DNA of 58,554 nt from Desulfobacula sp. (lineage in GTDB: Bacteria; Desulfobacterota; Desulfobacteria; Desulfobacterales; Desulfobacteraceae). How positions within the stretch are numbered: position 1 is the stretch's first letter; each line of letters begins with the position of its first letter. Below are positions 60 through 22,955 of the stretch, in pieces. The stretch is taken from NCBI RefSeq assembly GCF_030611305.1, contig NZ_JAUWQB010000011.1, positions 1 to 58,554 of the forward strand, given 5' to 3'. Both the position numbers and the translations under genes were made by a program. The notes beneath the pieces were generated by a model, which made no database searches, was not told the origin of the DNA, and saw only the letters and a program-made list of their open reading frames with translations.

Positions 60-150
60 CCACCTTTAGGTGGTTCATGGTTTTTTGACCGCTTTGAGCG
101 GTTCACAATCAAGCCTCCGGGTTTACCGGAGGTCATTGACTGCAGATTGA
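59..150 (+). mobile_element. Right end of an IS200/IS605-type element
   Basis: Three consecutive small palindromes follow the transposase stop: ACCACC/GGTGGT at 59-74, ACCGC/GCGGT at 88-102 and CCTCCGG/CCGGAGG at 114-132. The 20-mer ACCGCTTTGAGCGGTTCACA (88-107) recurs exactly at 40787-40806 behind the complete transposase. In this family, subterminal hairpins at the right end are recognised by TnpA. The exact cleavage point cannot be fixed by eye, so the right boundary (about 150) is approximate. Confidence 0.65.
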
Positions 151-198
151 ATTAAACAGAATAAAAGGTCTTAATTGACCAAGATGGAGATCTACAAT

Positions 199-777: not shown

Positions 778-858
778 GCCGGAAATATATGTCAACAGAA
801 TCCGGGTAGAGTTTTTTTCTGCTTGACTGTAAATCACAAATTTATTATTCGCTGATCT

Positions 859-7012: not shown

Positions 7013-8050
7013 ATGGAATTTTTCAATAATTTTTCAAAATTTTCAAAGGGGTTTGACAATTGCATTACAACCATTGATTCCCATACTGAAGGGGAATCCA
7101 CGCGTCTGATCGTCAATGGTTTGGGGGATATCAAAGGAAAAACCATGATGGATAAGCTTGAATGGTTTAAATCCCGATATGATCATATCCGGTGTCTTTT
7201 GACAAAAGAACCCAGGGGTCCCAAGATTCTGGCAGCTCTTGTGACCGGAAATGTTACTCCTAATGCAAAGTTTGGACTGATATACATGGATGCCAAACGA
7301 TATCCCTATCTTTGCGGGCATGCAACCATTGGTGCCGTAGCAACCCTTGCAAGAGCAGGTTTCCTTGTGCTTGAACAGGGGGAAAATTCTGTGCTTGTGG
7401 ATACCCCGTCAGGGCTGATGGAGGCCAGGGTGTTTGTTCAGGAAGATACGCTCGATGCTGTGGCCATCAATATGGTGCCCTCCTTTGTTTATGCTACAGA
7501 TCAAGAGATCAAGGTTGAAGGGTTTGGAACGATAAAAGTGGATCTTGTCTGTACAGGCGGTTTTTTTGCCATGGTCGATTCACATCAAATCCGAATGGAG
7601 CCGGTTTTGGAAAATAAGGAATTTTTAACGGATCTGGGCATGAAAATTATTGATGCTGCCAATGAACAGCTTACCGTGTCCCATCCTGTCAGGCCGGATG
7701 TCAGAACCATTGATGTCACAGAATTTTATGATTCGCAGCATGATGAGGGAAACGCCTCTGGCAAAGGCATGGTCATTTACGGGGAATCCCATGCAGACCG
7801 ATCTCCCTGCGGTACCGGCACGGCTGCGAAACTAACCCTGCTTCATCATTATGGAAAAATCAAAATGAATCAGAGATATATTAATTACAGTCCTCTGGGT
7901 ACGTCTTTTGACGCGATGCTTGTAAAAAAGAAAAAAATCGGGTCTGTGGAGGGTTTTGTTGTGCAGATTAAAGGCATGGCCTATTTAACCGGTGTTCATC
8001 ATTTTATCGTTGAAGAAAATGATCCCTTTCAACAAGGCTTTATCATGTAA
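7013..8050 (+). CDS. Proline racemase family protein (hydroxyproline 2-epimerase-like)
   Basis: A 345-aa member of the proline racemase/4-hydroxyproline epimerase family. Both catalytic cysteines are present: Cys101 in YLCGHATIG and Cys266 in DRSPCGTGT. The enzyme is therefore expected to epimerise at C-alpha; the dehydratase subfamily, which lacks the first Cys, is unlikely. TIDSHTEGE at the N-terminus is typical of the family. It starts the cluster with an amidohydrolase (stop and start overlap as TAATG at 8048-8052) and a sigma-54 activator. Together they point to catabolism of a cyclic imino acid or an amino acid derivative. The substrate cannot be distinguished between proline, hydroxyproline and others from sequence alone. 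Confidence 0.85.
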   Translation: MEFFNNFSKFSKGFDNCITTIDSHTEGESTRLIVNGLGDIKGKTMMDKLEWFKSRYDHIRCLLTKEPRGPKILAALVTGNVTPNAKFGLIYMDAKRYPYLCGHATIGAVATLARAGFLVLEQGENSVLVDTPSGLMEARVFVQEDTLDAVAINMVPSFVYATDQEIKVEGFGTIKVDLVCTGGFFAMVDSHQIRMEPVLENKEFLTDLGMKIIDAANEQLTVSHPVRPDVRTIDVTEFYDSQHDEGNASGKGMVIYGESHADRSPCGTGTAAKLTLLHHYGKIKMNQRYINYSPLGTSFDAMLVKKKKIGSVEGFVVQIKGMAYLTGVHHFIVEENDPFQQGFIM

Positions 8051-9660
8051 TGAAAACTGTTGCAGATATCATTTTGCATAATGGCAATATTCAAACCCAG
8101 GATGGTTTTCATCCAATGGCCCGGGCCGTTGCCGTATCAGGCAAGAGGATTTTAAGTGTCGGGTCTGACAGGGATATTTTGGGTTTGGCTTCAAGCCACA
8201 CACAAGTGATTGATCTTGATAACAGATTGGTATTGCCGGGATTTATTGATACCCACTTTCATTTTTATGAGTGGGCGTTGAACTATGACAGTATTGATTT
8301 TTCACGGGTCGGCTCGTTTAAGGAAATGGAAAACGCTGTTTCAAACAAGGCCCTGGCCCTTGGCGAGGGTAACTGGGTGTTGGGCCAGGGATTTAATGAG
8401 TCGGACTGGCCTGAAAATAAAATACCGGATCGGTATGATCTTGACAGGATTGCACCCAATAACCCGGTTTGTATCTGGAGATGTGACCTTCATTTGTCTG
8501 TTGCCAATTCTCTTGGCTTAAAGCTTGCCAAAATCGGTTTTGAAACCCCTGATCCAGAAGACGGTGTGATTGCAAAGGATACATCCGGCCGTCCCACAGG
8601 TGTTCTAAAAGAGCTTGCCTCAAACCTGATCAGGAATGTCCTGCCTAAACCTTCCCGTGCAGCCGTGCTTGAAAATATGCAAAAAGCCGTAGGCGATGCC
8701 CATAAATTTGGACTTACATCCATCCATGATATCCGGCTCATGGGAGGACTTGACGGCGCAGATGCGTTAAAGGCATGGCAGCAGCTTCATCGGGAAAACA
8801 GGCTTCATATCCGTTGTCATGTGGCTCTTCCCGGGGAAATGACAGACCAGGCCATTGATTTAGGGCTTTGTACAGGGTTTGGGGATGACCTTTTAAAGAT
8901 CGGTTATTTAAAGTTTTTTTCCGACGGAGGCATGGGCGCAAGGACCGGCTGGATGACAAAAAAATATCTTGATGCAGAATTTGGTATGCCCTTAACCCCG
9001 GTTGCGGATATTGAAAGGGCTGTGTTAAAAGCCGATCAGGTCGGATTGAGCGTCATGGTGCATGCTGTTGGTGACCGGGCCAACAAAGAAATTATAGCCA
9101 TGTTCCAGAGGATTGAAAGCCATGACCGGACCCGGTGTATAATCCCCCATCGAATCGAGCATGTTCAGATGATTCTGCCCGAAGATCTTGAAAAACTTTC
9201 AACGTTGAAAAACATTGCTGTCTCCTGCCAGCCCAACAACTTAAGCCTTGATATCTCCATGATTGATTCCTGTGCAGGGCCCAGAGGAAAGTATGCCTAT
9301 GCCCTGAAAAATATTTTAAAAACAGGTGTTCCCCTGATGCTCAGTTCTGATGCCCCTGTGGCAGATCCCAATCCTCTGGCAGGGATTTATTCTGCTGTTA
9401 CAAGAAAAAGAATGAATAAGACCCCGGAGAAGGGATGGTATGTGGAGCAGGCACTCAGTGTTGAAGAAGCCGTTAAAGGGTATACGATCACCCCGGCTGT
9501 GGCGTCAGGGACAGGGGATTGTCTGGGGTCCATTTCAAAAGGAAAGATTGCGGATATCATTGTTCTTGACCAGGATATCTTTAAGATTGATCCTGATGGG
9601 ATCGCTGATACAAAAGTGGATATAACCCTTTTTGATGGAAGAATTGTCCATGAAAGATGA
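8050..9660 (+). CDS. YtcJ-like metal-dependent amidohydrolase
   Basis: A 536-aa cytosolic amidohydrolase of the YtcJ/NfdA (amidohydrolase_3) type. Motifs in order: LPGFIDTHFHF near residues 60-70 (HxH metal ligands), SDGGMGARTG near 290, VHAVGDRANKE near 337, PHRIEHVQM near 362 and SSDAPVADPNPL near 435. Members hydrolyse amide, N-formyl or cyclic ureide-type bonds, and the natural substrate here is unknown. It shares a one-base overlap with the upstream epimerase gene and overlaps the start of the regulator gene, so the three are translationally coupled. It may release or open the compound that the epimerase handles. Confidence 0.85.
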   Translation: MKTVADIILHNGNIQTQDGFHPMARAVAVSGKRILSVGSDRDILGLASSHTQVIDLDNRLVLPGFIDTHFHFYEWALNYDSIDFSRVGSFKEMENAVSNKALALGEGNWVLGQGFNESDWPENKIPDRYDLDRIAPNNPVCIWRCDLHLSVANSLGLKLAKIGFETPDPEDGVIAKDTSGRPTGVLKELASNLIRNVLPKPSRAAVLENMQKAVGDAHKFGLTSIHDIRLMGGLDGADALKAWQQLHRENRLHIRCHVALPGEMTDQAIDLGLCTGFGDDLLKIGYLKFFSDGGMGARTGWMTKKYLDAEFGMPLTPVADIERAVLKADQVGLSVMVHAVGDRANKEIIAMFQRIESHDRTRCIIPHRIEHVQMILPEDLEKLSTLKNIAVSCQPNNLSLDISMIDSCAGPRGKYAYALKNILKTGVPLMLSSDAPVADPNPLAGIYSAVTRKRMNKTPEKGWYVEQALSVEEAVKGYTITPAVASGTGDCLGSISKGKIADIIVLDQDIFKIDPDGIADTKVDITLFDGRIVHER

Positions 9661-11056
9661 ATCATCACACATGACCACGACATATCTTCAAACGATTTTT
9701 AATCGGTCGGCTGATGGTTTGATGATCTGTGATGCCAAGGGAACAATCCTAAAGCTTAATCGTGCGGCTGAAATCTTAAACGGGGTAAAGGCATCTGAGG
9801 TTCTGGGAAAAGATGTTAGAACCCTTGTAAAAGAAGGACAGATTGACAGGTCAGCCACCCAGGAAGTCCTTGAAACAAAACGCCAGGTCAGTGTAATTCA
9901 GACGACACCGCGATCAAAATATACCTTGCTGGTTACGGGAACCCCGGTTTTTGATGATCACCATAATATTGTTTTTGTTGTTATAAATGAACGGGATATT
10001 TCTCTTATTGAAAGCATGAGAAAGGAGCTTGCGCTTGCACGGCAGGAATCTGAAAAAATTAAGGATGAGTTGACCGAGTTAACCCTGCTTGAATTAAAAG
10101 AGAACAATATTGTGGCCCAGAGCGATTCAATGAAGCAGACTTTAAAGCTTGCCTTAAAACTATCTGTTATTAATGCTTCCAATATTCTGATCCAGGGAGA
10201 ATCCGGGACAGGCAAAGGGTTGCTGGCAAAATTCATTCATAAACACAGGACGGGGAGTAAAATGCCGTTTATTCAGATCAATTGTGCAGCCCTGCCTGAA
10301 AACCTTCTAGAGGCTGAATTGTTTGGATATAAAAAGGGAGCGTTTACCGGAGCCAGTGAAAAAGGAAAGATAGGTTTGTTTGAATTGGCATCCGGGGGCA
10401 CGATTTTCCTTGATGAAATCGGGGAAATGTCCATCGGGGTACAGGCCAAGCTGTTGAAGTGCCTGGATGATCACGAAATTATGCCTATTGGTGGTACCGT
10501 CCCAAAAAAAATAGAATGCTCGATTATTGCCGCCACAAACCAGGACCTTGACTCCCAGACATTCAATAAGAAGTTCAGGCTGGATCTTTTTCACAGGCTT
10601 AATACATTTACGCTTTTGATTCCACCATTGAGACATCGGCCTGAGGATATTCTTGAGCTGGTTCGAATAACCCTGAAAAAATATAACAAACAATACAATC
10701 GCAGAGCACGTATCGGTTACAAGGCTTTTGAGACACTTCAAGCTTATGACTTCCCGGGGAATGTCCGGGAACTGATCAATATCATTAAGCAGGCCATTGT
10801 TATGTGTGACAGACGGTCTTTGGATGATTATCTGGTAAAAGCATTAAACAAGATCACGCCCCTTGGAACAAAAGTGCAACCAATGAAAGAAGGCAGCACT
10901 CTTTCGGATAAAATATGGGCGGTTGAAAATGAAATATTGATGCAGGCAGCTATGAAATGCCTTACCACCAGGGAGGCAGCCAGCTTTTTGGGAATCAGCC
11001 AGCCCTCTGTGGTCAGAAAATTTAAAAAGCACGGGATTGCTATTATAAAAAAGTAA
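9650..11056 (+). CDS. PAS-domain sigma-54-dependent transcriptional activator
   Basis: A regulator of about 468 aa. An N-terminal PAS sensor covers about residues 10-120, a short coiled linker follows, and the central AAA+ domain carries Walker A GESGTGKG (near 183), the sigma-54 contact loop GAFTGA (near 230) and Walker [15 protein letters not shown]-terminal helix-turn-helix ([17 protein letters not shown]) follows. The HTH resembles the TyrR-type group more than classical Fis. ATG 9650 has GGAAG at 9637-9641; upstream in-frame TTG 9632 and ATG 9635 are alternatives. It overlaps the amidohydrolase gene by 11 bp. A good -24/-12 promoter 230 bp downstream, in front of the ABC transporter genes, is its likely target. 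The PAS domain may sense the imported compound. Confidence 0.9.
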
Positions 11057-11197: not shown

Positions 11198-11284
11198 AAT
11201 CAAAATAGATTTTTTACAATTATTAAAACTTTTCTGAAATCAAAATCCTTTTAATTTCAGATAGTTAATAAAAAAATTAATATA

Positions 11285-11300
11285 TGGTACAAGAATTGCA
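11285..11300 (+). promoter_or_regulatory. Sigma-54 (-24/-12) promoter of the ABC transporter operon
   Basis: TGGTACAAGAATTGCA matches the sigma-54 consensus TGGCAC-N5-TTGCA with one substitution. GG (11286-11287) and GC (11298-11299) are separated by exactly 10 bases. Transcription should start near 11311, giving a leader of about 54 bases before the permease ATG at 11365. The upstream gene encodes a sigma-54 activator, which supports the call. Confidence 0.8.
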
Positions 11301-11364
11301 CCGAATTAAAATTTTAAATGCAGCTAAAATCGTATGAACTAGTAATAAGGTATAGGATGGTTGA

Positions 11365-12234
11365 ATGAAAAATAAATCTTGGAAGCCCTGGATTTTATTA
11401 TCCCCCTCTTTGATAGCTGTCTTTCTCCTTTTGGTTATACCCATCTGTTTTGTGATTGTATATAGTTTTTGGCTCAGAGCACCAAGTGGTGCGGACATCC
11501 CCGCCTTTCAATTTGGTAATTATGCTAAATTTTTTGCAGATTTTTTTTATCCGTCCATCCTTTTAAATACACTTCGTGTTGCCCTTGAAACGGTTATTTT
11601 ATGCCTGATCCTGGGCTACATCCCGGCATATTTTTTTTATAAGACGGAATCCCGGTTCAAACCCTTTCTCATGATACTGGTCATGCTGCCATTCTGGATC
11701 AGCTTTATCATCCGGACCTTAAGCTGGATAAACATCCTGGGAGATTCCGGGTTGATCAATCACCTGCTGCTGAAGTATAATATCATCTCCACTCCTTTGG
11801 CCATGCTGTATAACGAAGGGGCCGTCATCATGGGCCTTTTACAATACCTTTTGCCATTCATGATTTTAAATATTTACGTCAGTCTTGATGGCATTGATAA
11901 AAGCCTGGCTGAAGCGGCAAAAAGCCTTGGATGCACAGAATGGCAGGCCTTCAAAGAAGTGACACTTCCTTTAAGCCTGCCAGGTGTGAGTGCCGGGTGC
12001 CTGCTTGTTTTCGTGTTGACCTGCGGGACATACCTTCCCCCGATGATTCTAGGTGGTCCTGGAAATGAAATGATCGCAAACCTGATCTTCAAGCGGATAA
12101 TCGGAACCCTTGACTGGCCGTTTGGTTCGGCCATCAGTGTTATTTTAATGGTGCTGTTGATGGTCATTGTCTACACCTACAACCGATATATGGGCATCGG
12201 CCAGATATTTAAAACACTAAGCAATGAATCGTAA
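11365..12234 (+). CDS. ABC transporter permease, spermidine/putrescine (PotB) type
   Basis: A 289-aa inner-membrane permease with six predicted hydrophobic segments. The first is at residues 10-35 (LLSPSLIAVFLLLVIPICFV). The EAA loop that contacts the ATPase is AEAAKSLGCTEWQAFKEVTLPLSLPG near residue 185. Its pairing with a PotC-type permease, a binding protein and a PotA-type ATPase shows a polyamine/opine/iron-type importer. Substrates of this family range widely. The first gene behind the sigma-54 promoter at 11285. Confidence 0.9.
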   Translation: MKNKSWKPWILLSPSLIAVFLLLVIPICFVIVYSFWLRAPSGADIPAFQFGNYAKFFADFFYPSILLNTLRVALETVILCLILGYIPAYFFYKTESRFKPFLMILVMLPFWISFIIRTLSWINILGDSGLINHLLLKYNIISTPLAMLYNEGAVIMGLLQYLLPFMILNIYVSLDGIDKSLAEAAKSLGCTEWQAFKEVTLPLSLPGVSAGCLLVFVLTCGTYLPPMILGGPGNEMIANLIFKRIIGTLDWPFGSAISVILMVLLMVIVYTYNRYMGIGQIFKTLSNES

Positions 12235-12259
12235 CAATGGGTCGTAACAGGGAAGAAAT

Positions 12260-13060
12260 ATGAAAAAATTTATTTCAGGATGGTCATTGATAAAAATATT
12301 TACACTCCTGGTTTATATTTGGATGTTTACCCCGATTATTGCCGTTGTCCTTCTCTCATTTAATCCCCAGCAGTTTGGATCATTCCCAATGGAGGGGTTC
12401 AGTTTCAAGTGGTATGTAAAGCTCTCGCATAATTCAACTATTTTGGATGCCTTTAAGAATTCCCTGGTGCTGGGGTCCTGCACAGCGGTATTGGCCACGG
12501 CTTTTGGCGTGCCTGCCGCCATGGCGTTTATTCGATATGAGTTTAGGGGCAAGGAATTTTTAAACACCCTTTTAATTGCACCCATCATGATTCCAGAGGT
12601 TGTATTGGGGGTTGCTTTATTGTTATTTATCAGGTGGCTGCAACAACCAAAGAGTTTTGCCCTGCTGCTCATAGGTCATGTGGTTTTAACCCTGCCCTAT
12701 GTCCTTCTTATTGTCCAGGCAAGACTTGTAGGAATTAAAAAGGAATATGAGGAAGCCGCATTGTCCCTTGGCGCAAACCCGTTTCAAACATTCAGGGAAA
12801 TTACGTTTCCCTTGCTGGCACCTGCGATCTTAGCTGGAATGCTGTTCGCCTTTACCATTTCCTTTGATGATGTAACAGCAACGCTTTTCTGGGCCACGGC
12901 ACAGAATCAGACCGTTCCTGTGAAAATATTCGGTATGCTGCGAAACTCCATCAGTCCTGAAATTAACGCCCTTGGTGCGGTCATGATTGTTCTGACGGTT
13001 TCGACCCCTCTTCTTGCAGGATATATCTCAAGAAAGTTTGCAAAAGGAATAGGAAAATAA
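12260..13060 (+). CDS. ABC transporter permease, PotC type
   Basis: A 266-aa second inner-membrane permease of the importer. About six hydrophobic segments are visible, and the EAA motif reads EEAALSLGANPFQTFREITFPLLAP near residue 165. It starts 25 bp after the PotB-type gene, with GGGAAG directly upstream of ATG 12260. Like PotC, it is slightly shorter than its partner. It should form the heterodimeric channel with the upstream permease. Confidence 0.9.
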   Translation: MKKFISGWSLIKIFTLLVYIWMFTPIIAVVLLSFNPQQFGSFPMEGFSFKWYVKLSHNSTILDAFKNSLVLGSCTAVLATAFGVPAAMAFIRYEFRGKEFLNTLLIAPIMIPEVVLGVALLLFIRWLQQPKSFALLLIGHVVLTLPYVLLIVQARLVGIKKEYEEAALSLGANPFQTFREITFPLLAPAILAGMLFAFTISFDDVTATLFWATAQNQTVPVKIFGMLRNSISPEINALGAVMIVLTVSTPLLAGYISRKFAKGIGK

Positions 13061-13129
13061 ACAAAGGTTTAAGCATCAAGGCGGCACATAATATTATTAG
13101 TTTAATTCTAAGGAAAAAGGAGAAAAAGA

Positions 13130-14290
13130 ATGGGAAAAGATTTGAAGAGAAAGTTTGATGATGTTTATGAAAGTTATCAGCAAGGCAACATTTCAAGACG
13201 TGATTTTGTAAAATTTCTTGGCATTTCCGGCGCTGCATTGGGACTGATTGGCGGTCCTTTTGGGCTTGTACAAAACGCATTTGCTGCAAAATCAATTACC
13301 TTACATTCCTGGGGCGGGTCAACCTCTGAAGCATTAAGAAAATTTGCATTTGATCCTTTTACCAAAGCCACTGGAGTTAAAGTGATTGATGCTGCATTTA
13401 CGGGTATGGCTGCATTTTTAACACAGGTAAAAGCCTCTTATCCACCCGGCGGAGAATTTAATATCGCCCATTTAAGCGCTGTTTATGATTATGCCCGCTA
13501 CACAGATCTCGGGTTTGGTGTTGAACTGGATGAAAGTAAAATACCCAATCTCAAGAATGTAATGAGCAAAATGACCAACACCCTGAAAGGAATCAGTAAG
13601 GGAACTCTTTCTGCCGTGCCTTATGATTTAGGCCAGACAGGTATTGCCTATAATACAGATAAAATATCCAAGGAAAAAGCTGAAAAACTTGGTGCATCTT
13701 TATTATATGACAAGAGCCTTAACGGAAAACTTGGATCATGGGGTGGAGACCACATCACCAACATGTGGTATGCAGCGCTTCATACGGGACAGGACCCGAA
13801 CAATATCAAAGACGAGAAAGCAGTCTGGGCGGCTTTGAAAGAACAAAGAGGCATGATTAAAAAATATTGGGCATCCGGTTCCGAGCTGATGAGTCTTCTG
13901 GGAAATGGTGACATCTATGCCACTGTTGCCTGGTCAGGCAGGGTAGGATTACTGCAGAAAGAGGGGCATCCAATTGGATATCTTGCACCGGAAGGTACTT
14001 ATTCCTGGATGGAATACATGTATGTCCTTAAGGGGACAGACCTTGACGTGGCTCAAAAGCTACTCAATTTTATGCTTGAACCCGAAGCTGCCAAAGCCGT
14101 TTCCATAGGCATGGGCTATCCGCCAAGTCTTGACCCGACAAAAATTGCCATGCCGGATGAAATCAAAAAATTACCGGCATTTGACCCTACAGGCACGTTA
14201 GAGGGGTATAAGTTTGCAGATCCTGCATATTGGAATGCCCATCAACTTGACTGGGCTGAAAAATGGGACAGGATTATGGCCGGCAAGTAA
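13130..14290 (+). CDS. ABC transporter periplasmic binding protein with Tat signal
   Basis: A 386-aa extracellular solute-binding protein of the PotD/spermidine-putrescine type. The N-terminus carries a twin-arginine export motif SRRDFVKFLG (Arg23-Arg24) after an unusually long charged n-region, then a hydrophobic stretch and a likely cleavage after AFA at about 53. Tat export implies periplasmic delivery of the folded protein. The mature chain starts SITLHSWGGSTSEALRKFAF, typical of the family. Strong GGAGAA ribosome-binding site. A stable hairpin directly follows the gene and separates it from the ATPase gene, which would favour excess binding protein. Confidence 0.92.
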   Translation: MGKDLKRKFDDVYESYQQGNISRRDFVKFLGISGAALGLIGGPFGLVQNAFAAKSITLHSWGGSTSEALRKFAFDPFTKATGVKVIDAAFTGMAAFLTQVKASYPPGGEFNIAHLSAVYDYARYTDLGFGVELDESKIPNLKNVMSKMTNTLKGISKGTLSAVPYDLGQTGIAYNTDKISKEKAEKLGASLLYDKSLNGKLGSWGGDHITNMWYAALHTGQDPNNIKDEKAVWAALKEQRGMIKKYWASGSELMSLLGNGDIYATVAWSGRVGLLQKEGHPIGYLAPEGTYSWMEYMYVLKGTDLDVAQKLLNFMLEPEAAKAVSIGMGYPPSLDPTKIAMPDEIKKLPAFDPTGTLEGYKFADPAYWNAHQLDWAEKWDRIMAGK

Positions 14291-14305
14291 GTTAATCACA
14301 AATGT

Positions 14306-14336
14306 CTTCAGACCCCGGCCTGGCCGGGGCCTGAAG
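14306..14336 (+). repeat. Intercistronic GC-rich hairpin after the binding-protein gene
   Basis: CTTCAG at 14306-14311 pairs with CTGAAG at 14331-14336, and the inner CCCCGGCC/GGCCGGGG arms pair as well. No T-run follows, so this is more likely an mRNA-stabilising or attenuating stem-loop than a full terminator. Confidence 0.65.
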
Positions 14337-14380
14337 ATTAATTTGCCCGAAGATTACTTTAATGGATAATTTGGGAGCGT

Positions 14381-15484
14381 ATGGCTTTGAAACAGGAAAA
14401 AGACCCTGCATTTGTAAAATTTACCGGGATTGAAAAACGGTATGGAAAAGTTGTTGCAGTTAAAAAGATGGACCTTGAAATTCCGGAAGGGTCCCTGGTA
14501 ACACTTTTAGGCCCCTCTGGATGCGGCAAAACAACACTTTTACGAATGCTTGCAGGCTTGGAGGAACCAACCCATGGAGATATCTATATCAAAGGCAAAC
14601 GGATCAATGATACTCCGATCCACAAAAGAAACTTAGGGATGATATTTCAGAACTATGCACTTTTTCCCCATAAAACCATTTTTGATAATGTGGCGTTTGG
14701 ACTTAAGTACAGGAGTGCGTCAAAAGCCATTATGAAAGAAAAAGTTGAAAAAGCTCTGGAAACAGTCCGGCTTCCCGGAGTCGGGGACAGGATGCCATCC
14801 CAGTTATCAGGTGGCCAGCAACAGCGTATTGCTCTTGCAAGAGCCATTGTTATTGAACCGGATGTGTTGTTGATGGATGAACCCTTATCAGCTCTTGATG
14901 AAAATTTAAGGGAAGATATGAGAAGAGAGATTGACAATCTCCAGCAGGCTTTGGGAGTGACCACTATCTTTGTTACCCATGATCAGAGAGAGGCATTGTC
15001 CATGTCAGATAAAGTTGTGGTTATGAAAGACGGTTTTGTTCAGCAGGAAGGTGATCCTGAAGAGGTTTATAACAATTCGGTCAACCATTTCGTTGCAGAT
15101 TTTCTAGGGCATTCCAATTTTCTCAATGCCATTGTAAATGAGAAACAAGACGATTATTTGAGTGTAACCCTGGAAGATAACACTACCTGCCTTGCGGTTC
15201 CGGCAGGAACATTTAACAAAGGGGACAAGGTGGAAATGGTAATCCGGGCGCAAAAATTTAACCTGGGTTACAGAGCCGACCATGTTCCGGAACAAGGGGA
15301 GAATGTTTTTTTCGGAAAGATTGTGGATCGCAGTTATATGGGAGGAGAAGTCAGTTATTTTATAGAACTTGAAAACAAGCTTGTGCTGCATGCAATAAAC
15401 TTTGTCAAACGATCTCCATATCGGCGGGGTGATGAGGTTTTTATGAAAGTTATGCATGAACACTGCCGGTTACTTAAAATTTGA
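14381..15484 (+). CDS. ABC transporter ATPase, PotA type
   Basis: A 367-aa ATPase of the importer. Walker A GPSGCGKTT lies at residues 44-52, the signature LSGGQQQRIALA near 139-150 and Walker B VLLMDEP near 162-168, followed by an H-loop in FVTHDQREA. The C-terminal 110 residues form a TOBE-type domain that usually tunes activity or senses substrate. It works with the two permeases and the binding protein encoded upstream. Its stop overlaps the start of the next small gene by one base (TGATG at 15482-15486). Confidence 0.93.
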   Translation: MALKQEKDPAFVKFTGIEKRYGKVVAVKKMDLEIPEGSLVTLLGPSGCGKTTLLRMLAGLEEPTHGDIYIKGKRINDTPIHKRNLGMIFQNYALFPHKTIFDNVAFGLKYRSASKAIMKEKVEKALETVRLPGVGDRMPSQLSGGQQQRIALARAIVIEPDVLLMDEPLSALDENLREDMRREIDNLQQALGVTTIFVTHDQREALSMSDKVVVMKDGFVQQEGDPEEVYNNSVNHFVADFLGHSNFLNAIVNEKQDDYLSVTLEDNTTCLAVPAGTFNKGDKVEMVIRAQKFNLGYRADHVPEQGENVFFGKIVDRSYMGGEVSYFIELENKLVLHAINFVKRSPYRRGDEVFMKVMHEHCRLLKI

Positions 15485-15816
15485 TGACGATAGATTTTTC
15501 AGGGCATAAAATGATCCGAAAAAGTTTTGGCTGGATTAAGAAACATCTTGATCCTTCAATGAGCTATATTATTTTTGAAAATGATTTAACCAAACAGCGT
15601 CTTTCTATTTTTTCCGAATCCCTTATCGCATATCAATATTTAAAAAAGGGAAATTATGCCTGGAAAAAAGTTTATGATTCCAAATACTCAAAAGAATACC
15701 TGGTCATAAAAATTGATCCGGAAAATGAAGATGAAACATTGGGAAAAGTCCTGGGATATGGATTCCCTAAAGATACTGTATACTATTTGTACAAGGCCGA
15801 AAAGAGGTTGTATTGA
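15484..15816 (+). CDS. Small conserved-looking protein of unknown function
   Basis: About 110 aa, not recognised. It is hydrophilic and mixed charge, with aromatic-rich blocks (SFGWIKKHLDPSMSYIIF, YQYLKKGNYAWKKVYD) and no cysteine pattern, signal peptide or membrane segment, so it should be a small cytosolic globular protein. ATG 15484 overlaps the stop codon of the ABC ATPase gene by one base, and the KamA-like gene follows, so it is translated as part of the importer/aminomutase operon. It might bind or modulate one of these partners, but nothing in the sequence proves that. Confidence 0.6.
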   Translation: MTIDFSGHKMIRKSFGWIKKHLDPSMSYIIFENDLTKQRLSIFSESLIAYQYLKKGNYAWKKVYDSKYSKEYLVIKIDPENEDETLGKVLGYGFPKDTVYYLYKAEKRLY

Positions 15817-15905
15817 GTTTGATGGAACCCGTTAGGAAAAAGATCCGTAATGTGGATGTTTCCGGACGGCTTGGAAATGAAATTTTTGTTTAAAGGAATA
15901 TGGTA

Positions 15906-18368
15906 ATGGAAAGTTATGATCGTTCAATAAACATAGTGTTCAAACATTCAGGGAAAAAAATAGAAGTCGGTCTTGCCGCTTTGACAAAAACCGTGATTGA
16001 ATTTTTTGATATCTATGGGACGAAAACGCTTGCAGGAAAACAATTCTGCAGCATCACAAAAGAGGGCGATGGGGTGTACAAATTTTCCAAGCTTTTGGAA
16101 AAAACAGGATATCCAAATGATCCGGCAGGTTTTTTTACTGAGGTTTTATCGGTCATTGTTAATGGGGAAATGAAAAAGATAATAGTGAATCAGATTGAGA
16201 TTCCTCATCTCATGCTCATGGCAATCCTTGAGCAGGTACTCCCGGGATATGGATATATTTCCATTAAAAATACCCATCAGCTTGAGCAAGCCACTCATCT
16301 TGCCGTTCCTGAAAAAGACCGGGAACAACTCCAGCAGGTGATTGAAACATATCCGGTAAGGTTGTCACGCCATACCATTCGTCAGATGCTGGTATCAAAG
16401 GATGTGGCTTATCAGTATCTGCCGTTTATCGAAGAGCTGGATTCCGGCGGTCATACCAACACCTGGATTGGCCAGTTCCATGACGGCCTCTTGGAACAGA
16501 TGTACCAGAACCGGGTCATCTTTCTTTTAAATATGGCCTGTCCCGTTTATTGCAGGTTTTGTTTCAGAAAACATAAAGATTCCAGGAATGAAAAAAACCC
16601 GACGGTGGAGGGTGTTCAAAAAGCGGTCCGGCATGTAAAGGATTCGCCATCCATCAAAGAAATTGTTGTTACCGGAGGTGATCCCTTCATGAACAGGGCC
16701 AATATGGCGGCTACCATAGACGGGCTCATGCAGGTGGATCATGTTCAGACTCTCCGTCTTGCCACACGATCCATTGCTTATTATCCGGATCTTTTCCTTG
16801 AAAATGAAGGTGCTTATCTGAAATACCTCAAGCAAAAGAATTTTGAACTTCAGCAGCACGGCAAAAGGATGGAAGTGGCCACCCATTTTATTCATCCGGA
16901 TGAAGTGTCGCCTGAAAGTCTTGAGATTATAACCGATCTTGTCAACAATGGCATTGCCGTGTATGTTCAGACTCCGTTTTTGAATGACTGCAATGACAAA
17001 GGCCCTGAACTGGTAAGACTTTTCAGCCTGTTGCGGGGCGCCGGTGCCGAACTTCATTATATTTATATTCCCTGCAGTCCCATCCACGGGAACAGCATTT
17101 ACTGGAGTTCTTTGTCCCATGGGATAAAGATTGCCAATCATCTTCGGGCTCACCTGTCTGACAGGATTATTCCCAGCATCTGTACGGCAACCCCCATTGG
17201 AAAAATTGACTGGTATACAAGTGGATGGGCAGTGGAGAAGGTGAAAGACAATGAGAATTTTGTCTGGATCAGAACGCCCTATACACCGGGTTATTTTAAA
17301 GCCTTTGCCCCCCTTGCCGCTGAGCTTGACAATATAAGGGTCAATGATGAAGGCACCATTGATATTCAGTATATGGCGCAGATCGGGGATGAAACTCTTC
17401 TTCATGGGCCCAGACCCAAAAGAATTGCCAATGAAAAAGAGTCTTTATCTGCTGGTGATATTGAAACCCTTAAATTTATTTTAGTTAATGAAAGACAGAC
17501 AGGGTCATCCATTGTAAATACGGGTTTTGAAAAACTTTCGCGGCTCCACGAAACCAGGGTTGAGATTGATGCTCTCGCATCTGAAAGCGAGATCAATTAT
17601 ATCAGATCAGATGACAGGATTACAGATGTCATTATATCCTCGTCAAAGGATGCCATAGAATCTCTTTTTTATATTAAAAAACTCATTAAAGACTTAAAGG
17701 ATATTCCCCATGTAAATGCCGTCCGGCTTTTAAGCATGAAGTTTAACAATGAGCCCCAGGCTTATACACGGGCTGTGATCAATACTCTTGGGGATTTGAA
17801 TAATCTTTGTGTGGTGAATCCTTTAAGACTGGAAATCGAAACCTGGTTTACCCTGTCAGATGAGTTAACCGATGCCCATACAAAACTTGCCGGAAGATTA
17901 AACAACAAGGGCATAACCGTATATTGCAATACCGCTCTTTTAGGGGGTATCAATGATTCAGATGAACATATCCATTCTCTTGCCTATAGTGTACGAAAAG
18001 CAGGAATCGAATTTCATCACCTCTATGTTGCAGGGCTTCCCATTCAGCAAAAATGGAATATAGACCACCCAGTGGATTCCTATGATGTAGTTGATATTGC
18101 CACAAAAGTCAGAAGAGAAGGATCAGGAAGAGAGATCCCGAGATATATGATTGCAACCTGCTTAGGGGAAGTGGATTATGGCCTGACATCATCTTTTGTT
18201 CACGATAATGGTCAACTAAAGATAAAGCCTGGTTGTTATGATTTGTTCTATTATAAAAATTTGGATGAAAAGTTTGTGCTTCCCAAAGGCGTTACCACAG
18301 ATGATGATGGATCTCTTGTGGTGCCCATAGAAGGGCTTATAAAAACAAGCGAATTCCCTGTTTCCTAG
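15906..18368 (+). CDS. Double-length KamA-like radical SAM protein with degenerate second half
   Basis: About 820 aa. Residues 1-200 include a helical N-terminal region. The first radical SAM barrel covers about 200-480, with the cluster motif C212-PVY-C216-RF-C219, TGGDPF near 260 and a probable PLP lysine, Lys433, in TATPIGKIDW. This is the layout of lysine 2,3-aminomutase relatives, which move an amino group with SAM and PLP. Residues 560-820 repeat the barrel's later part: RLEIETWFTLSDEL matches RMEVATHFIHPDEV, and GIEFHHLYVAGLPIQ matches GAELHYIYIPCSPIH. In this copy there is no CxxxCxxC, and the lysine position is Glu755 (ATCLGEVDYG). ATG 15906 has AAAGGA 8 bases upstream; ATG 15900 is too close. 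The substrate is unknown. Confidence 0.88.
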   Translation: MESYDRSINIVFKHSGKKIEVGLAALTKTVIEFFDIYGTKTLAGKQFCSITKEGDGVYKFSKLLEKTGYPNDPAGFFTEVLSVIVNGEMKKIIVNQIEIPHLMLMAILEQVLPGYGYISIKNTHQLEQATHLAVPEKDREQLQQVIETYPVRLSRHTIRQMLVSKDVAYQYLPFIEELDSGGHTNTWIGQFHDGLLEQMYQNRVIFLLNMACPVYCRFCFRKHKDSRNEKNPTVEGVQKAVRHVKDSPSIKEIVVTGGDPFMNRANMAATIDGLMQVDHVQTLRLATRSIAYYPDLFLENEGAYLKYLKQKNFELQQHGKRMEVATHFIHPDEVSPESLEIITDLVNNGIAVYVQTPFLNDCNDKGPELVRLFSLLRGAGAELHYIYIPCSPIHGNSIYWSSLSHGIKIANHLRAHLSDRIIPSICTATPIGKIDWYTSGWAVEKVKDNENFVWIRTPYTPGYFKAFAPLAAELDNIRVNDEGTIDIQYMAQIGDETLLHGPRPKRIANEKESLSAGDIETLKFILVNERQTGSSIVNTGFEKLSRLHETRVEIDALASESEINYIRSDDRITDVIISSSKDAIESLFYIKKLIKDLKDIPHVNAVRLLSMKFNNEPQAYTRAVINTLGDLNNLCVVNPLRLEIETWFTLSDELTDAHTKLAGRLNNKGITVYCNTALLGGINDSDEHIHSLAYSVRKAGIEFHHLYVAGLPIQQKWNIDHPVDSYDVVDIATKVRREGSGREIPRYMIATCLGEVDYGLTSSFVHDNGQLKIKPGCYDLFYYKNLDEKFVLPKGVTTDDDGSLVVPIEGLIKTSEFPVS

Positions 18369-18378
18369 GTAAAACAAA

Positions 18379-19044
18379 ATGATGAAATATCCCTATATCG
18401 CATATAGTGAAAAAATTAAGATTCACCCCATCTTTAAAAATTTGACAGGTGATCCCCTGGTCGTAGACATGTCGATTTACTCGACTCTTTTTGATACCAT
18501 TGATGTCAGGGATCAGAAAGGGTTCCAGAAGCATCTGGATGATGATATGAAAAACAGATACTCATGGGGGGTTTCGTCCTATCTTGAAAATCGGGAAATT
18601 GTATTGTCGCAATGCCCCCAGATGGTTGAGGAACAACGGTTTTACCATCTGGGTCTTGATGTAATTGTTTCTCTGGATACCCCCCTGCATTCCCCTTTGG
18701 ATGCAAGGGTTATGGAAAGTGGATATGAGGCGGGCGAAGGAAATTATGGCGGCCACGTCCTTTTAATGCATCAAAGCCCATATTTTGAAATTTTTTACAG
18801 CTTTTACGGCCATTTAAATCGGGAAAGGCTCCCTGCCATTGGTACAGAATTTTCGGCCGGAGAAGCCTTCTCCTATATCGGGGATTTCCATGAGAATGGG
18901 AACTGGTTTTACCATACCCACCTTCAGGTCATTACTCAAAAAGGACTTGAACAGGGATATCTTTCCAAGGGATATTGTGCAGCCAAAGACCTGGCTATAA
19001 TGGAGTCCTTATGTCCGTCGCCTTTGTCCCTGTTCAAAATTTGA
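18379..19044 (+). CDS. Cytosolic M23/LytM-like metallopeptidase-fold protein
   Basis: A 221-aa protein with the LytM/M23 zinc signature: HLGLDV near residue 89 (HxxxD), a GHVLLMHQ strand, YGHLN, and HTHLQV near 179 (HxH). There is no signal peptide or lipobox, unlike cell-wall M23 enzymes, so a role on peptidoglycan is doubtful. In other bacteria an M23-like domain is fused to class III aminotransferases and small-molecule kinases; here it sits 28 bp in front of an aminotransferase gene, which repeats that association as separate genes. It starts 10 bp after the KamA-like gene and belongs to the same operon. Confidence 0.75.
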   Translation: MMKYPYIAYSEKIKIHPIFKNLTGDPLVVDMSIYSTLFDTIDVRDQKGFQKHLDDDMKNRYSWGVSSYLENREIVLSQCPQMVEEQRFYHLGLDVIVSLDTPLHSPLDARVMESGYEAGEGNYGGHVLLMHQSPYFEIFYSFYGHLNRERLPAIGTEFSAGEAFSYIGDFHENGNWFYHTHLQVITQKGLEQGYLSKGYCAAKDLAIMESLCPSPLSLFKI

Positions 19045-19072: not shown

Positions 19073-20221
19073 GTGGATGTTAACCAGATTCTCCCACAGG
19101 TTGATCTTCCCCCAAATATGATCCACCTGGGATTGGGGCAGCCGAGCAACCATTTACTCCCCATAAAAGAGTTGGAAAAAGCGGCTGGTCATTGCTTGTC
19201 AAAAGAAAATAGTTTTTTTCTTGCCTATGGAGAAGAAAGGGGCAATGCTAACTTCAGGCAAACCCTGGCTGATTTTTTAACCGGCCAATATCCAAATCCA
19301 GTGGATCCTGGACAATTGTTGATCACCAATGGAAACTCTCAAGCCCTGGATTTTATCTGCACATTGTTTACCCGTCCCGGAGATACAGTGCTGGTGGAGG
19401 AACCCAGTTATTTTTTGGCTCTAAGAATATTTGTCGATCACAAACTCAACCTGGTGAGTATCCCCGTGGATGATAACGGGATGGTAACAGATGTCCTCAA
19501 AAAAAAGCTTGAAACCCTGAAGCCTTCCTTCCTGTATACCATTCCCACTTATCATAATCCTGCCAGTGTTACCCTGTCTTACAAACGGCGGCAGGACCTG
19601 GTTAAAATTTGTGCACAAAAGAATTTGCTGGTGCTGGCGGACGAGGTCTACCATTTTCTCAATTATTCTGATGATCCGCCCCCTCCCATGGGCAACTGGA
19701 TCGACAAATGCCCCTTGATCAGTCTGGGATCATTTTCAAAGATCCTGGCACCGGGCTTAAGACTGGGATGGATGCATACAAGCCCTGATTTAATTAAAAA
19801 AATGGCAAAGTCCGGTGTTTTAGACAGTGGCGGCGGTTTTAATCCCTTTACGTCTGAAATTGTAAATTCAGTCATTTGCCTCGGGTTTTTAAAGGCCAAT
19901 ATCCAACGCCTCAAAAACGTCTACAGTCAAAGGATTAAAATTTTCTGCGATCAATTGCGCATGCACCTGCCGGATCAGGCAGTGTTTAAGGTTCCAAAGG
20001 GCGGATATTTTATCTGGGTGCGGTTACCGGATGGTATTGATACCAATTCGTTCAGGCAAGCAGCCCGAAAACAGAATGTGGATTTTCATCCGGGATCTGT
20101 GTTTTCACACAATAAAGGATTAAAGAATTACATGCGCCTTTCCTTTGCTTTTTATGATGAAGAAGTGCTGGCAGAAGGTGCCCGCAGGCTTGGGAAAGTG
20201 ATTTCGGAAAACTTATCTTAA
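19073..20221 (+). CDS. Fold-type I PLP aminotransferase (LysN/MocR-like)
   Basis: A 382-aa aspartate-aminotransferase-fold enzyme. The PLP lysine is Lys223 in SFSKILAPGLRLGW. NGNSQALD (cofactor loop), IPTYHNPA and ADEVYHFL are further family marks. It most resembles the 2-aminoadipate aminotransferase/MocR catalytic group, and lacks the N-terminal GntR DNA-binding domain. GTG 19073 is preceded by TGGAGG with 6-base spacing; the ATG at 19068 is out of frame. In the operon it is well placed to remove the amino group after the aminomutase step. The amino donor and acceptor are unknown. Confidence 0.88.
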   Translation: MDVNQILPQVDLPPNMIHLGLGQPSNHLLPIKELEKAAGHCLSKENSFFLAYGEERGNANFRQTLADFLTGQYPNPVDPGQLLITNGNSQALDFICTLFTRPGDTVLVEEPSYFLALRIFVDHKLNLVSIPVDDNGMVTDVLKKKLETLKPSFLYTIPTYHNPASVTLSYKRRQDLVKICAQKNLLVLADEVYHFLNYSDDPPPPMGNWIDKCPLISLGSFSKILAPGLRLGWMHTSPDLIKKMAKSGVLDSGGGFNPFTSEIVNSVICLGFLKANIQRLKNVYSQRIKIFCDQLRMHLPDQAVFKVPKGGYFIWVRLPDGIDTNSFRQAARKQNVDFHPGSVFSHNKGLKNYMRLSFAFYDEEVLAEGARRLGKVISENLS

Positions 20222-20756: not shown

Positions 20757-22955
20757 ATGAAACTGACAGATCTTCAAGAACTGATCGATGCAAGATTATT
20801 ATCACCTTCAAAATCCATAGTTGAAGATGAGGCAAAAAAAATATTTAAATTGTTCCATATCCCGGTTGTGGAAGAAAAGCGGGAGACAGATGTTGCCCAA
20901 GTCCTGGATGCCTGCCAAAAAACAGGTTTTCCTGTGGTGATAAAAGGCATTGGTGCAAATATTTTACATAAAACAGAATCAGGCCTTGTTCGTGTTGGAT
21001 TAAACACTGAGGATCAGGTATGTGATGCTGTTAAGGAAATGAAGAACTCTGCGAAAGATGATATTGAGGCCTTTCTCATACAACCTGTGGTATCAGGGAG
21101 AAGAGAGTTTGTTGCCGGCATGTTTAAAGATCCCCAGTTTGGCCCGGTCATTGTGTTTGGCCTGGGTGGGGTATTGACCGAGGCATTAAAAGATATTGTC
21201 TTTAAAATCGCCCCGTTAAATGACGCGGATATGGATGATATGTTTGAACAATTATCTTCAAAAAAACTTTTAGCCGAGTTCAGGGGTGAAAAAGCAGTCA
21301 AAAAGCAGGCAGTCAAAAAAATTCTCAAAGGACTGTCAGATATTGCTTTAACATATCCGAATATCAGGGAGATCGATATCAATCCTCTGATTATACAGCC
21401 TGACGGTTTTCCTGTTGCCGTGGACGGCCTGATTGTCCTGGAAGAGATGAGGCAAGAAAAACATAAGACCTACGATATTGATTTAAATGTATTGGGTTCC
21501 TGTTATTATCCAAAGTCCATCGTCTTTATCGGGGCGTCCGCCACTCCCGGAAAATGGGGGCATATGCTTTTAACCAATACCTTATCCCGGGATTATAAGG
21601 GCAAGGTTTTTCTGGTAAATCCCAAGGGCGGAAAAATAACCGGGCGAAAGGTGTATAAATCCGTCACTGAAATTGAAGAGGATGTTGAGCTGGCAGTGGT
21701 GACCATTCCAGCAAACAAAGTGATTGATCTGATACCGGGTTTGAAAAAGAAACATGTCAAAGGGATTTTGTTAATCACTTCCGGGTTCAGGGAAGTGGGT
21801 GTTGAAGGGGCAAAATTAGAGGAAAGACTTGTCCAGGAGGCGTATGATGCAGGGATATTGATCCTTGGGCCTAACACCATGGGAGTATGCAATCCTCATA
21901 TTGATTTTTATTGTTGCGCTGCCCATGCTTACCCGCTACCGGGTTCTACCGCCCTTGTCTGCCAGTCAGGAAATATGGGGACCCAGCTTCTGGCTTTTGC
22001 CGAGCAGCAGGATATTGGTATCCGGGCTTTTTCAGGGTCGGGAAATGAAGCAATGGTCACCATTGAAGATTATATGGAGGCATTTGAAATTGATGACCTG
22101 ACAAGAACGGTGGTTCTTTATATTGAGAGTGTAAAAGACGGCTCAAGATTTTTTAAAAGTGCAGCAAGAGTATCCCGGAAAAAACCTGTGGTTGTCTTAA
22201 AGGGCGGCAGGACCAGAATGGGTGAAAGGGCAGCGTCAAGCCATACCGGGGCCATGGCTTCAGACACAAAAGTCTTTGATGCCGCCTGCAGGCAGGCCGG
22301 TATTATTCAAGCGGATCAACCCATGGAACTTCTGGATCTGTCTGCCGTATTTTCATCCCTGCCCCTGCCAAAGGGAAACCGGGTGGCCATCATGACCCTT
22401 GGGGGCGGATGGGGCGTGATCACAACAGATCTTTGTGTGGAACACGGACTTGAGGTTCCAGAGCTTTCCAAGAATATTATTGAACGGCTCAACAGGATTC
22501 TGCCATCATTCTGGAGTCATGGAAATCCTGTAGATATTGTGGGAGAAGGTGATCCTAATATTCCCAAGATCTGTTTGGAAGAGCTGCTAAAATGGGACGG
22601 ATGCGATGCGGTCATTCATCTTGGTATTCATGGGAAAAGGGTGCTGGTCAATAATATGATTGAATCGGTGCTCAGAACAGATCATGATATTGACAGGGAA
22701 GCGGCACAAAGTTTTAAGGATGCAATACTGCAATTTGAAGAGGACTATACCCGGTATGTGGTCAAATTAACCCAGAAGTATGAAAAACCGGTTCTGGGTG
22801 TAAGCCTTTTGACCGATGAAATCAGCAGAACCCTTTACAGGGTTGAAGGATATGAACATAAGAGTGTGTTCTTCCCATCCCCTGAAAGAGCGGTTAAAGC
22901 GCTTTGGGGAATGTACCAGTATAATGATTGGCGTAAAAGCCACTCAAATCAGTGA
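20757..22955 (+). CDS. ADP-forming acyl-CoA (acetyl-CoA-type) synthetase
   Basis: A 732-aa single-chain NDP-forming acyl-CoA synthetase. The ATP-grasp (beta) domain comes first at about residues 10-225 (GFPVVIKGIGANILHKTE, EFLIQPVV-type and INPLIIQPDG motifs), then a CoA-binding Rossmann domain from about 240 (VFIGASATPGKWG) and the ligase-CoA domains with the SSHTGAMASD loop near 494. This domain order occurs in bacterial and archaeal enzymes that turn acyl-CoA plus ADP and phosphate into acid plus ATP, or the reverse. It would give the upstream amino-acid pathway a substrate-level phosphorylation step, or activate the acid. GGAG lies before the ATG. The acyl specificity cannot be read. Confidence 0.9.
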   Translation: MKLTDLQELIDARLLSPSKSIVEDEAKKIFKLFHIPVVEEKRETDVAQVLDACQKTGFPVVIKGIGANILHKTESGLVRVGLNTEDQVCDAVKEMKNSAKDDIEAFLIQPVVSGRREFVAGMFKDPQFGPVIVFGLGGVLTEALKDIVFKIAPLNDADMDDMFEQLSSKKLLAEFRGEKAVKKQAVKKILKGLSDIALTYPNIREIDINPLIIQPDGFPVAVDGLIVLEEMRQEKHKTYDIDLNVLGSCYYPKSIVFIGASATPGKWGHMLLTNTLSRDYKGKVFLVNPKGGKITGRKVYKSVTEIEEDVELAVVTIPANKVIDLIPGLKKKHVKGILLITSGFREVGVEGAKLEERLVQEAYDAGILILGPNTMGVCNPHIDFYCCAAHAYPLPGSTALVCQSGNMGTQLLAFAEQQDIGIRAFSGSGNEAMVTIEDYMEAFEIDDLTRTVVLYIESVKDGSRFFKSAARVSRKKPVVVLKGGRTRMGERAASSHTGAMASDTKVFDAACRQAGIIQADQPMELLDLSAVFSSLPLPKGNRVAIMTLGGGWGVITTDLCVEHGLEVPELSKNIIERLNRILPSFWSHGNPVDIVGEGDPNIPKICLEELLKWDGCDAVIHLGIHGKRVLVNNMIESVLRTDHDIDREAAQSFKDAILQFEEDYTRYVVKLTQKYEKPVLGVSLLTDEISRTLYRVEGYEHKSVFFPSPERAVKALWGMYQYNDWRKSHSNQ

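What the first reader, a model, noticed from the sequence alone, without database searches (positions are those of the whole stretch)
15906..18368. KamA-like radical SAM protein with an internal, catalytically dead second copy
One chain holds two related barrels. The first has C212xxxC216xxC219 and Lys433 (TATPIGKIDW). The second aligns over several blocks (RLEIETWFT with RMEVATHFI; GIEFHHLYVAGLP with GAELHYIYIPCSP) but has no cluster cysteines, and Glu755 stands where the PLP lysine should be. Lysine 2,3-aminomutases are normally single-barrel oligomers. An active/inactive fusion suggests an internal pseudo-heterodimer, perhaps for regulation or to accept an unusual substrate. The DAPGG-type Asp that helps hold lysine in aminomutases is also missing in the first barrel.
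Basis: partly seen in the sequence, partly recalled or inferred. Interest (0 to 1): 0.85.

Follow-up and report, generated by a model that had tools for sequence, protein, structure and literature searches.

The report
Aminomutase fused to its dead twin
Many sulfate-reducing and some other anaerobic microbes carry one long protein in which a radical-chemistry, amino-group-moving enzyme is joined to a duplicated copy of itself that has lost its iron-sulfur site but is still strictly conserved, probably as a built-in helper half.

Summary
One ORF (15900-18368, 822 aa) contains two homologous KamA barrels. Residues 503-822 alone match KamA profiles (E 1.8e-14) and lysine 2,3-aminomutase 2a5h (E 2e-7); the halves align at E 1.5e-39; the second half predicted alone has 2a5h as best solved match (pLDDT 93.5; Z 20.0, next 11.8).

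In the second copy the CxxxCxxC loop is deleted (26 of 26 examined) and E/D faces the candidate PLP lysine (52 of 52 aligned sequences). It is not decaying (dN/dS 0.12-0.20) and stems from one old duplication. 53 of 340 sampled genomes of the order match, as do records from several other phyla.

Frequent neighbours: a polyamine-type importer, a proline-racemase-family protein, an amidohydrolase, an M23 protein. It co-occurs with the beta-lysine acetyltransferase AblB (23 of 29 AblB genomes, P 5.5e-16); in relatives 9 of 11 such genomes lack over-cut-off AblA.

Best reading: an aminomutase working as an intramolecular pseudo-dimer in beta-amino-acid metabolism. Substrate, PLP use and the dead barrel's role are untested.

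The parts
15900..18368 (+). fusion ORF, 822 aa (alternative start 15906): KamA-type radical SAM barrel + degenerate second KamA barrel
   Evidence: AAAGGA 8 nt before the ATG at 15906
15900..16271 (+). residues 1-124, mostly helical N-terminal region, fastest evolving (dN/dS 0.23-0.39)
16272..17414 (+). residues 125-505, first (cluster-bearing) KamA barrel and its tail
16539..16562 (+). C214-x3-C218-x2-C221 cluster motif (52 of 52 aligned sequences)
17076..17078 (+). S393, at the place of D293 of 2a5h
17187..17189 (+). A430, at the place of D330 of 2a5h
17202..17204 (+). K435, candidate PLP lysine (52 of 52)
   Evidence: loop shorter than in 2a5h
17442..18365 (+). residues 515-822, second (dead) KamA barrel
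   Evidence: (residues 503-822)
17541..17549 (+). R548 and H550, invariant in the second barrel (52 of 52), at the place of H111 and Y113 of 2a5h
18168..18170 (+). E757, acidic residue opposite K435 (E43/D9 of 52)
7013..8050 (+). proline-racemase-family protein with C101 and C266 in the two conserved Cys motifs; family in 27 of 79 related loci
8050..9660 (+). Amidohydro_3 amidohydrolase; homologue in 28 of 79 related loci
9632..11056 (+). PAS + sigma-54 activator
11285..11300 (+). sigma-54 -24/-12-like site (one mismatch) before the transporter genes; as a pattern at chance level over the whole window
11365..15484 (+). polyamine-type (PotABCD-like, below the curated cut-offs) ABC importer: two permeases, solute-binding protein, ATPase
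15481..15816 (+). 111-aa protein without a family match; homologue in 18 of 79 related loci
18379..19044 (+). M23-like protein with HxxxD and HxH kept; resembles the middle part of PRK06148; homologue in 39 of 79 related loci
19073..20221 (+). class I/II aminotransferase family protein
20757..22955 (+). ADP-forming acyl-CoA synthetase type protein

Best explanation
This is a tandem-duplicated, fused KamA-family protein. SHOWN by sequence and models: both halves are homologous KamA barrels; the second lost the cluster loop and the lysine equivalent to K435; the duplication is old, apparently single, and maintained by purifying selection; the fusion often lies with an importer, a racemase-family protein, an amidohydrolase and an M23 protein, and it co-occurs with the beta-lysine N-acetyltransferase AblB. 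INFERRED: the first barrel is a PLP- and SAM-dependent 2,3-aminomutase (cluster cysteines, K435, and R223 at the place of R134 of 2a5h are invariant). It acts on a lysine-like or derivatised amino acid whose far end is not held as a free ammonium group. The second barrel replaces the second subunit of a KamA dimer, giving an obligate intramolecular pseudo-dimer with one catalytic site. The product is a beta-amino acid that is acetylated by AblB or degraded further (deamination, deacylation, CoA activation).
For: Homology and fold of the second half. Full-length model pTM 0.92, so the arrangement of the barrels is predicted with confidence. One duplication: in the FastTree tree (26 N-halves, 26 C-halves, 29 single-barrel KamA) N, C and singles are each one clade; N+C against singles has support 0.938, N 0.994, C 1.0. 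With the C-half profile the weaker matches (about 107-122 bits) are first barrels of the fusion type, and no single-barrel KamA is among the rows at 1e-30 (at most 6 candidates a genome scored). Selection: C-half dN/dS 0.12-0.20, N-half 0.06-0.12, 6 orthologues. Context. AblB: 23 of 29 AblB genomes of the order also match the fusion against 53 of 340 overall, Fisher P 5.5e-16; by genus 17 of 21 against 34 of 142, P 2e-9. AblB lies in or beside the cluster in several loci. In 116 relatives, 9 of the 11 genomes with both have no AblA over the TIGR03820 cut-off; in G000, G413, G428 and G487 the best TIGR03820 match is no better than 2.5e-38, the level of the fusion itself. In the window's own genome TIGR00238 finds the two halves and one 19-bit match elsewhere.
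Against: K435 is one residue after the glycine aligned with G334 of 2a5h, where K337 (recalled) is three after it, and R112 of 2a5h is M201 here, so PLP binding is not assured. No coordinates were available, so the N-C contact was not compared with the 2a5h dimer. AblB is absent from 30 of 53 fusion genomes, so it is not an obligate partner. In the window's own genome AblB lies on another contig beside EutBC. Of the 9 genomes without over-cut-off AblA, five have other KamA proteins below that cut-off (up to 467.7 bits in G492; also G427, G477, G482, G496). The co-occurrence tests treat genomes or genera as independent. The racemase-family and M23 genes have no obvious step in a beta-lysine route. 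The more distant loci have little of this context (of 11: M23 in 3, amidohydrolase in 1, racemase family and SBP in none).
Confidence: 0.55

Rival explanations
1. The dead barrel is a ligand-binding (regulatory or substrate-holding) domain rather than only a structural subunit: its lumen, emptied of cluster and PLP, binds an amino acid or product and controls or completes the first barrel's site.
For: The C-half keeps a charged, nearly invariant set that differs from the N-half: R548 52/52, H550 52/52, R609 52/52, E645 52/52, E647 51/52 (N-half A48/G4), Y675 and N677 52/52, S742-G743-R744 52/52, E757 as E43/D9, E555 44/52 where the N-half has I51/V1. In the model, residues 642-649 and 553-557 lie on strands.
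Against: A salt-bridge network inside a barrel, or the contact with the first barrel, would be conserved too. Some of these residues (R609, E645, Y675) have the same residue in the first barrel (R286, E325, Y355). No coordinates or ligand data; which side chains face the lumen is inferred from strand alternation.
Confidence: 0.3
2. The fusion makes an N-acetylated beta-amino-acid compatible solute (osmolyte synthesis) with AblB, in place of AblA, rather than feeding a degradative pathway.
For: Strong co-occurrence with AblB; AblB or a close homologue immediately upstream on the same strand in L118, L122 and L127; an AblA-AblB pair seen in G656, which lacks the fusion.
Against: The clusters hold an importer, an amidohydrolase, a racemase-family protein, IclR or sigma-54 regulators and, in the window, an acyl-CoA synthetase, a catabolic make-up; no fetched locus titled Desulfobacula or Desulfotignum has AblB in the stretch held.
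Confidence: 0.2
3. The first barrel is a radical SAM enzyme of other chemistry, without PLP, acting for example on a cyclic amino acid handled by the racemase-family protein.
For: The 2a5h residues D293, D330 and R112 are not kept, the Lys loop is shortened, and the score is below every KamA cut-off of NCBIfam. A single-barrel relative with a similar Lys motif (L003/L208) has a hexapeptide-repeat protein, a polysaccharide deacetylase-type protein and an AMP-binding_C_2 protein as neighbours, not lysine genes.
Against: K435, R205 (R116 of 2a5h), R223 (R134) and the cluster motif are invariant in 52 of 52; E. coli EpmB too has a differently spaced lysine after the glycines (sequence; its role recalled).
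Confidence: 0.2
4. Artefact: chance similarity, a frameshift or an assembly join.
For: Two odd relatives (a giant ORF in L059, a split gene in L060) looked irregular at first.
Against: Both hold stretches of N in the stored records. 52 sequences with both halves were aligned from different assemblies, among them the sequenced strains Desulfosarcina alkanivorans PL12 and Desulfopila sp. IMCC35008.
Confidence: 0.01

Closest known systems
Lysine 2,3-aminomutase KamA/AblA (TIGR03820; PDB 2a5h)
   Same: Both halves share its barrel; the first keeps CxxxCxxC, R116, R130 and R134 of 2a5h and a Lys in the PLP-lysine region.
   Different: 154.7 bits against a cut-off of 525.4; D293, D330 and R112 of 2a5h are not kept; no LAM_C match; second barrel fused and dead.
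Arginine 2,3-aminomutase (TIGR04468), glutamate 2,3-aminomutase (TIGR04368), EpmB (TIGR03821)
   Same: Significant matches to the whole protein and to residues 503-822 alone.
   Different: All far below cut-off: 154.0 of 600, 146.3 of 650, 130.3 of 369.3.
Single-barrel KamA-like protein of 382 aa in another genome of the phylum (L003/L208)
   Same: Similar motif at the candidate lysine (TDIGKITFY against TPIGKIDWY); first branch among the singles in the tree as drawn (its support not examined).
   Different: One barrel only; other gene context.
AblA-AblB beta-lysine acetylation pair
   Same: The fusion co-occurs with AblB and lies beside it in several genomes.
   Different: The fusion is not AblA by score or by key residues.

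Membership tests
KamA family radical SAM (TIGR00238) | curated score cut-off 199.2 bits | tested here: not met
   158.7 bits for the whole protein
KamA family radical SAM (TIGR00238) | homology over the barrel | tested here: met
   E 1.7e-46 whole protein; E 2.5e-13 for residues 503-822 alone
KamA family radical SAM (TIGR00238) | CxxxCxxC cluster motif | tested here: met
   first barrel, 52 of 52; the loop is deleted in the second, 26 of 26
KamA family radical SAM (TIGR00238) | PLP-binding lysine | tested here: inconclusive
   K435 invariant, but the loop is shorter than in 2a5h
Radical SAM superfamily (PF04055) | Pfam gathering score 29.5 bits | tested here: met
   36.1 bits, residues 213-359 only; no match in the second half
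Lysine 2,3-aminomutase (TIGR03820) | curated score cut-off 525.4 bits | tested here: not met
   154.7 bits
Lysine 2,3-aminomutase (TIGR03820) | the two Asp that hold the lysine side chain (D293, D330 of 2a5h; role recalled) | tested here: not met
   S393 and A430
Lysine 2,3-aminomutase (TIGR03820) | LAM_C domain (PF12544) | tested here: not met
   no match in P0001; found in the L148 AblA
Lysine 2,3-aminomutase (TIGR03820) | interconverts L-lysine and beta-lysine | not testable with these tools
   needs an assay
Arginine 2,3-aminomutase (TIGR04468) | curated score cut-off 600 bits | tested here: not met
   154.0 bits
Glutamate 2,3-aminomutase (TIGR04368) | curated score cut-off 650 bits | tested here: not met
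   146.3 bits
EpmB (TIGR03821) | curated score cut-off 369.3 bits | tested here: not met
   130.3 bits

The most novel reading that the evidence does not exclude
A radical SAM aminomutase in which a duplicated barrel has been stripped of cluster and PLP lysine and rebuilt as a conserved, charged ligand site that holds or senses the substrate for its live twin. This double enzyme stands in for AblA beside the beta-lysine acetyltransferase in a new anaerobic route for a basic or acylated amino acid.
Probability: 0.27. Interest if true: 0.82.

Novelty: new variant of a known kind. Interest (0 to 1): 0.62.

Why it matters
To my knowledge radical SAM barrels are studied mainly as active enzymes. 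A fused, cluster-less copy kept under purifying selection in many Desulfobacterales and in records of other phyla gives a natural separation of the catalytic and non-catalytic roles of a KamA subunit. The gene neighbourhood and the AblB link also point to an undescribed amino-acid route in anaerobes, with an aminomutase whose substrate cannot be read off the lysine enzyme.

Tried and rejected
Rejected: chance similarity; assembly artefact; natural fission or giant fusion in relatives, as L060 and L059 hold stretches of N read as X; membership in LAM, ArgAM, GluAM or EpmB by cut-off. A first idea that R548 sits at the place of the carboxylate-binding Arg (R134 of 2a5h), from the alignment, was dropped: the alignment with single-barrel proteins, which fits the strand order of the model, puts R553 opposite R205 and leaves the cluster loop with R134 in a gap. 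The two alignments do differ in this region.

Led nowhere: in the 395-genome phylum sample only the window's own genome had a full-length copy at 1e-30; three other genomes had single-barrel matches. Paper searches that ran (listings and abstract starts only, capped lists) showed no title or abstract start on a fused or cluster-less KamA. In PMC11887813 a term search of the main text found no lysine, aminomutase or radical SAM (two passages seen). In PMC9105233 a term search found none of the LAM residue numbers sought (passages seen). In the VIA list for the full model the range for 2a5h runs 109..818, which may mean that the alignment uses parts of both halves; this was not resolved. PHROGs and PADLOC were not searched.

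Rows dropped or chosen: the tree used every second of the 52 sequences; one search counted 79 of 80 loci; the 55 of 116 fusion genomes are my reading of the rows and include contig-edge fragments. The 53 of 340 include G408 and G627, which matched only by a first barrel at a contig edge. The 29 AblB genomes include G590, below the cut-off (175 bits); the 13 include G483, a 64.6-bit fragment. G565 and G657 were counted as lacking the fusion although their AblB lies on short contigs: in G657 beside racemase-family, amidohydrolase and importer ATPase genes, in G565 beside an ATPase gene of the L123 type.
Full report
WHAT IS THERE. Pfam sees radical SAM only in the first half. NCBIfam KamA models hit both halves, and residues 503-822 given alone still score E 1.8e-14 (TIGR04468), 4e-14 (TIGR04368) and 2.5e-13 (TIGR00238). 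Against the PDB the only significant match of that half is 2a5h, lysine 2,3-aminomutase, E 2e-7.

TWO BARRELS. A profile comparison of the halves, cut from an alignment of 52 sequences (window included), gives E 1.5e-39 over 300 columns and extends through the tail after the lysine region. AlphaFold2 gives pLDDT 90.6 and pTM 0.92 for the whole chain, and 93.5 and 0.90 for the second half alone. With the second half as query, Foldseek ranks 2a5h first (E 1.6e-14), and VIA-align gives 2a5h Z 20.0 (243 aligned, rmsd 3.6) with the next chain at 11.8.

HOW THE SECOND COPY DIED. In the alignment with single-barrel KamA proteins the second copy runs from the first barrel strand (R553-D557, opposite R205-L209) straight past the cluster loop: C125, C129, C132, R130 and R134 of 2a5h fall in a gap in 26 of 26 C-halves examined. 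K435 of the first barrel faces E757; over 52 sequences this is K52 against E43/D9. What remains is strongly kept: R548, H550, R609, E645, Y675, N677, G712, Q716, S742, G743, R744 and P747 are invariant in 52 of 52, E647 51/52, D576 51/52. dN/dS of the second half is 0.12-0.20 against 0.06-0.12 for the first half and 0.23-0.39 for the N-terminal region (6 orthologues). So it is a maintained pseudoenzyme domain, not a decaying one, though it changes faster than the live half.

ORIGIN AND SPREAD. In a FastTree tree of 26 N-halves, 26 C-halves and 29 single KamA sequences, N, C and singles are three clades, with N+C apart from the singles (support 0.938). With the C-half profile in 340 genomes of the order, 53 match at 1e-30; the second-rank matches at about 107-122 bits are first barrels of the fusion type, and no single-barrel KamA is among the rows (at most 6 candidates a genome were scored, and G408 and G627 matched only by a first barrel at a contig edge). 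One old duplication explains this. Most of these records are metagenome assemblies, so single phylum labels may be wrong. Two groups (roughly 53-92% and 41-49% identity to the window's copy) coexist in some genomes of the relatives set.

FIRST BARREL. C214/C218/C221, R205, R223 and K435 are invariant. The residues at D293 and D330 of 2a5h are S393 and A430, and R112 is M201. From recalled knowledge of 2a5h, D293 and D330 hold the lysine side-chain ammonium, R134 the carboxylate and K337 the PLP; if so, the carboxylate grip stays and the side-chain grip is lost. K435 comes one residue after the glycine aligned with G334, K337 three after it, so PLP binding is probable, not shown.

GENE CONTEXT. 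In the window: proline-racemase-family protein (C101 and C266 both present, as in epimerases by recall), Amidohydro_3, sigma-54 activator, PotABCD-like importer, a 111-aa protein, the fusion, an M23-like protein without an obvious signal peptide but with HxxxD and HxH, an aminotransferase and an ADP-forming acyl-CoA synthetase. Over 79 of the 80 related loci, counting neighbours within about 9 kb: M23 39, importer SBP 35, amidohydrolase 28, racemase family 27; among 44 loci with at least 2.5 kb on both sides: 26, 25, 22, 19. In L123 the solute-binding protein is instead of the polar-amino-acid type, and L100 and L107 share a neighbouring gene with it. Of 11 distant loci with both flanks, M23 is in 3 and the amidohydrolase in 1.

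LINK TO BETA-LYSINE CHEMISTRY. A gene over the AblB cut-off (TIGR03827) lies beside or near the fusion in L118, L123 and L148, with homologues of the same BLAST cluster in L107, L122 and L127. A phmmer search of the 80 loci finds AblB-like ORFs or fragments in 12; in G477 AblB ends the importer/amidohydrolase operon beside the fusion (L207). In 340 genomes of the order, 29 have AblB (28 over the cut-off) and 23 of these match the fusion; expected by chance about 4.5, Fisher P 5.5e-16; by genus 17 of 21, P 2e-9. These tests do not correct for kinship. In 116 relatives, 13 have AblB (12 over the cut-off) and 11 of these have the fusion (P 0.0045); of these 11, 9 have no AblA over the cut-off, though five of the 9 have other KamA proteins below it. 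Of the six AblB genomes without the fusion in the order set, one has an AblA-AblB pair (G656), and two (G565, G657) have AblB beside genes of the kinds that accompany the fusion, on short contigs. In the window's own genome AblB is on another contig beside EutBC; TIGR00238 finds there only the two halves of the fusion and one 19-bit match.

HOW IT PROBABLY WORKS. The simplest reading is a KamA-type 2,3-aminomutase working as an intramolecular pseudo-dimer: one live site, with the second barrel taking the place of the neighbouring subunit. The changed side-chain pocket and the neighbours suggest an amino acid other than plain L-lysine, or a route in which the far amino group is acylated. A route of acetylation, deamination and deacylation of beta-lysine is known to me from older Pseudomonas work (recalled, not read here) and would use AblB, an aminotransferase, an amidohydrolase and a CoA step; the racemase-family and M23 proteins stay unexplained. 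The charged and invariant residues of the dead barrel leave open that it binds a ligand.

NOVELTY. No curated KamA model covers it: all six match below cut-off; only the general Pfam models Radical_SAM and Fer4_12 are over their gathering scores, in the first half. The paper searches listed nothing that by title or abstract start describes a fused or cluster-less KamA; the lists were capped and only that open-access library was searched. I file it as a new variant of a known kind.

Noticed in passing
18379-19044: M23-type protein with HxxxD/HxH kept and no obvious signal peptide beside amino-acid metabolism genes; resembles the middle part of PRK06148 and is the most frequent of the non-transporter neighbours counted. 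Its role is unexplained.
   Followed up: partly
G000:C35 (locus L196), 7056-11612: In the window's own genome AblB lies beside EutB/EutC (ethanolamine ammonia-lyase) and a beta-lactamase-family protein, away from the fusion.
   Followed up: partly
11285-11300: Sigma-54-like -24/-12 site with one mismatch upstream of the importer genes, behind a sigma-54 activator gene; as a pattern in the whole window it is at chance level.
   Followed up: partly
L132, 19782-21230: MttB-family (trimethylamine methyltransferase) gene at the end of a fusion/importer cluster in Bacterium UASB270.
   Followed up: no
15481-15816: 111-aa protein without a family match between importer ATPase and fusion, homologue in 18 of 79 related loci.
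   Followed up: no
L047-L058, L147, L154-L156: Second group of fusions (about 41-49% identity) mostly without the importer context; an HTH-cupin regulator gene recurs near five of these loci.
   Followed up: partly
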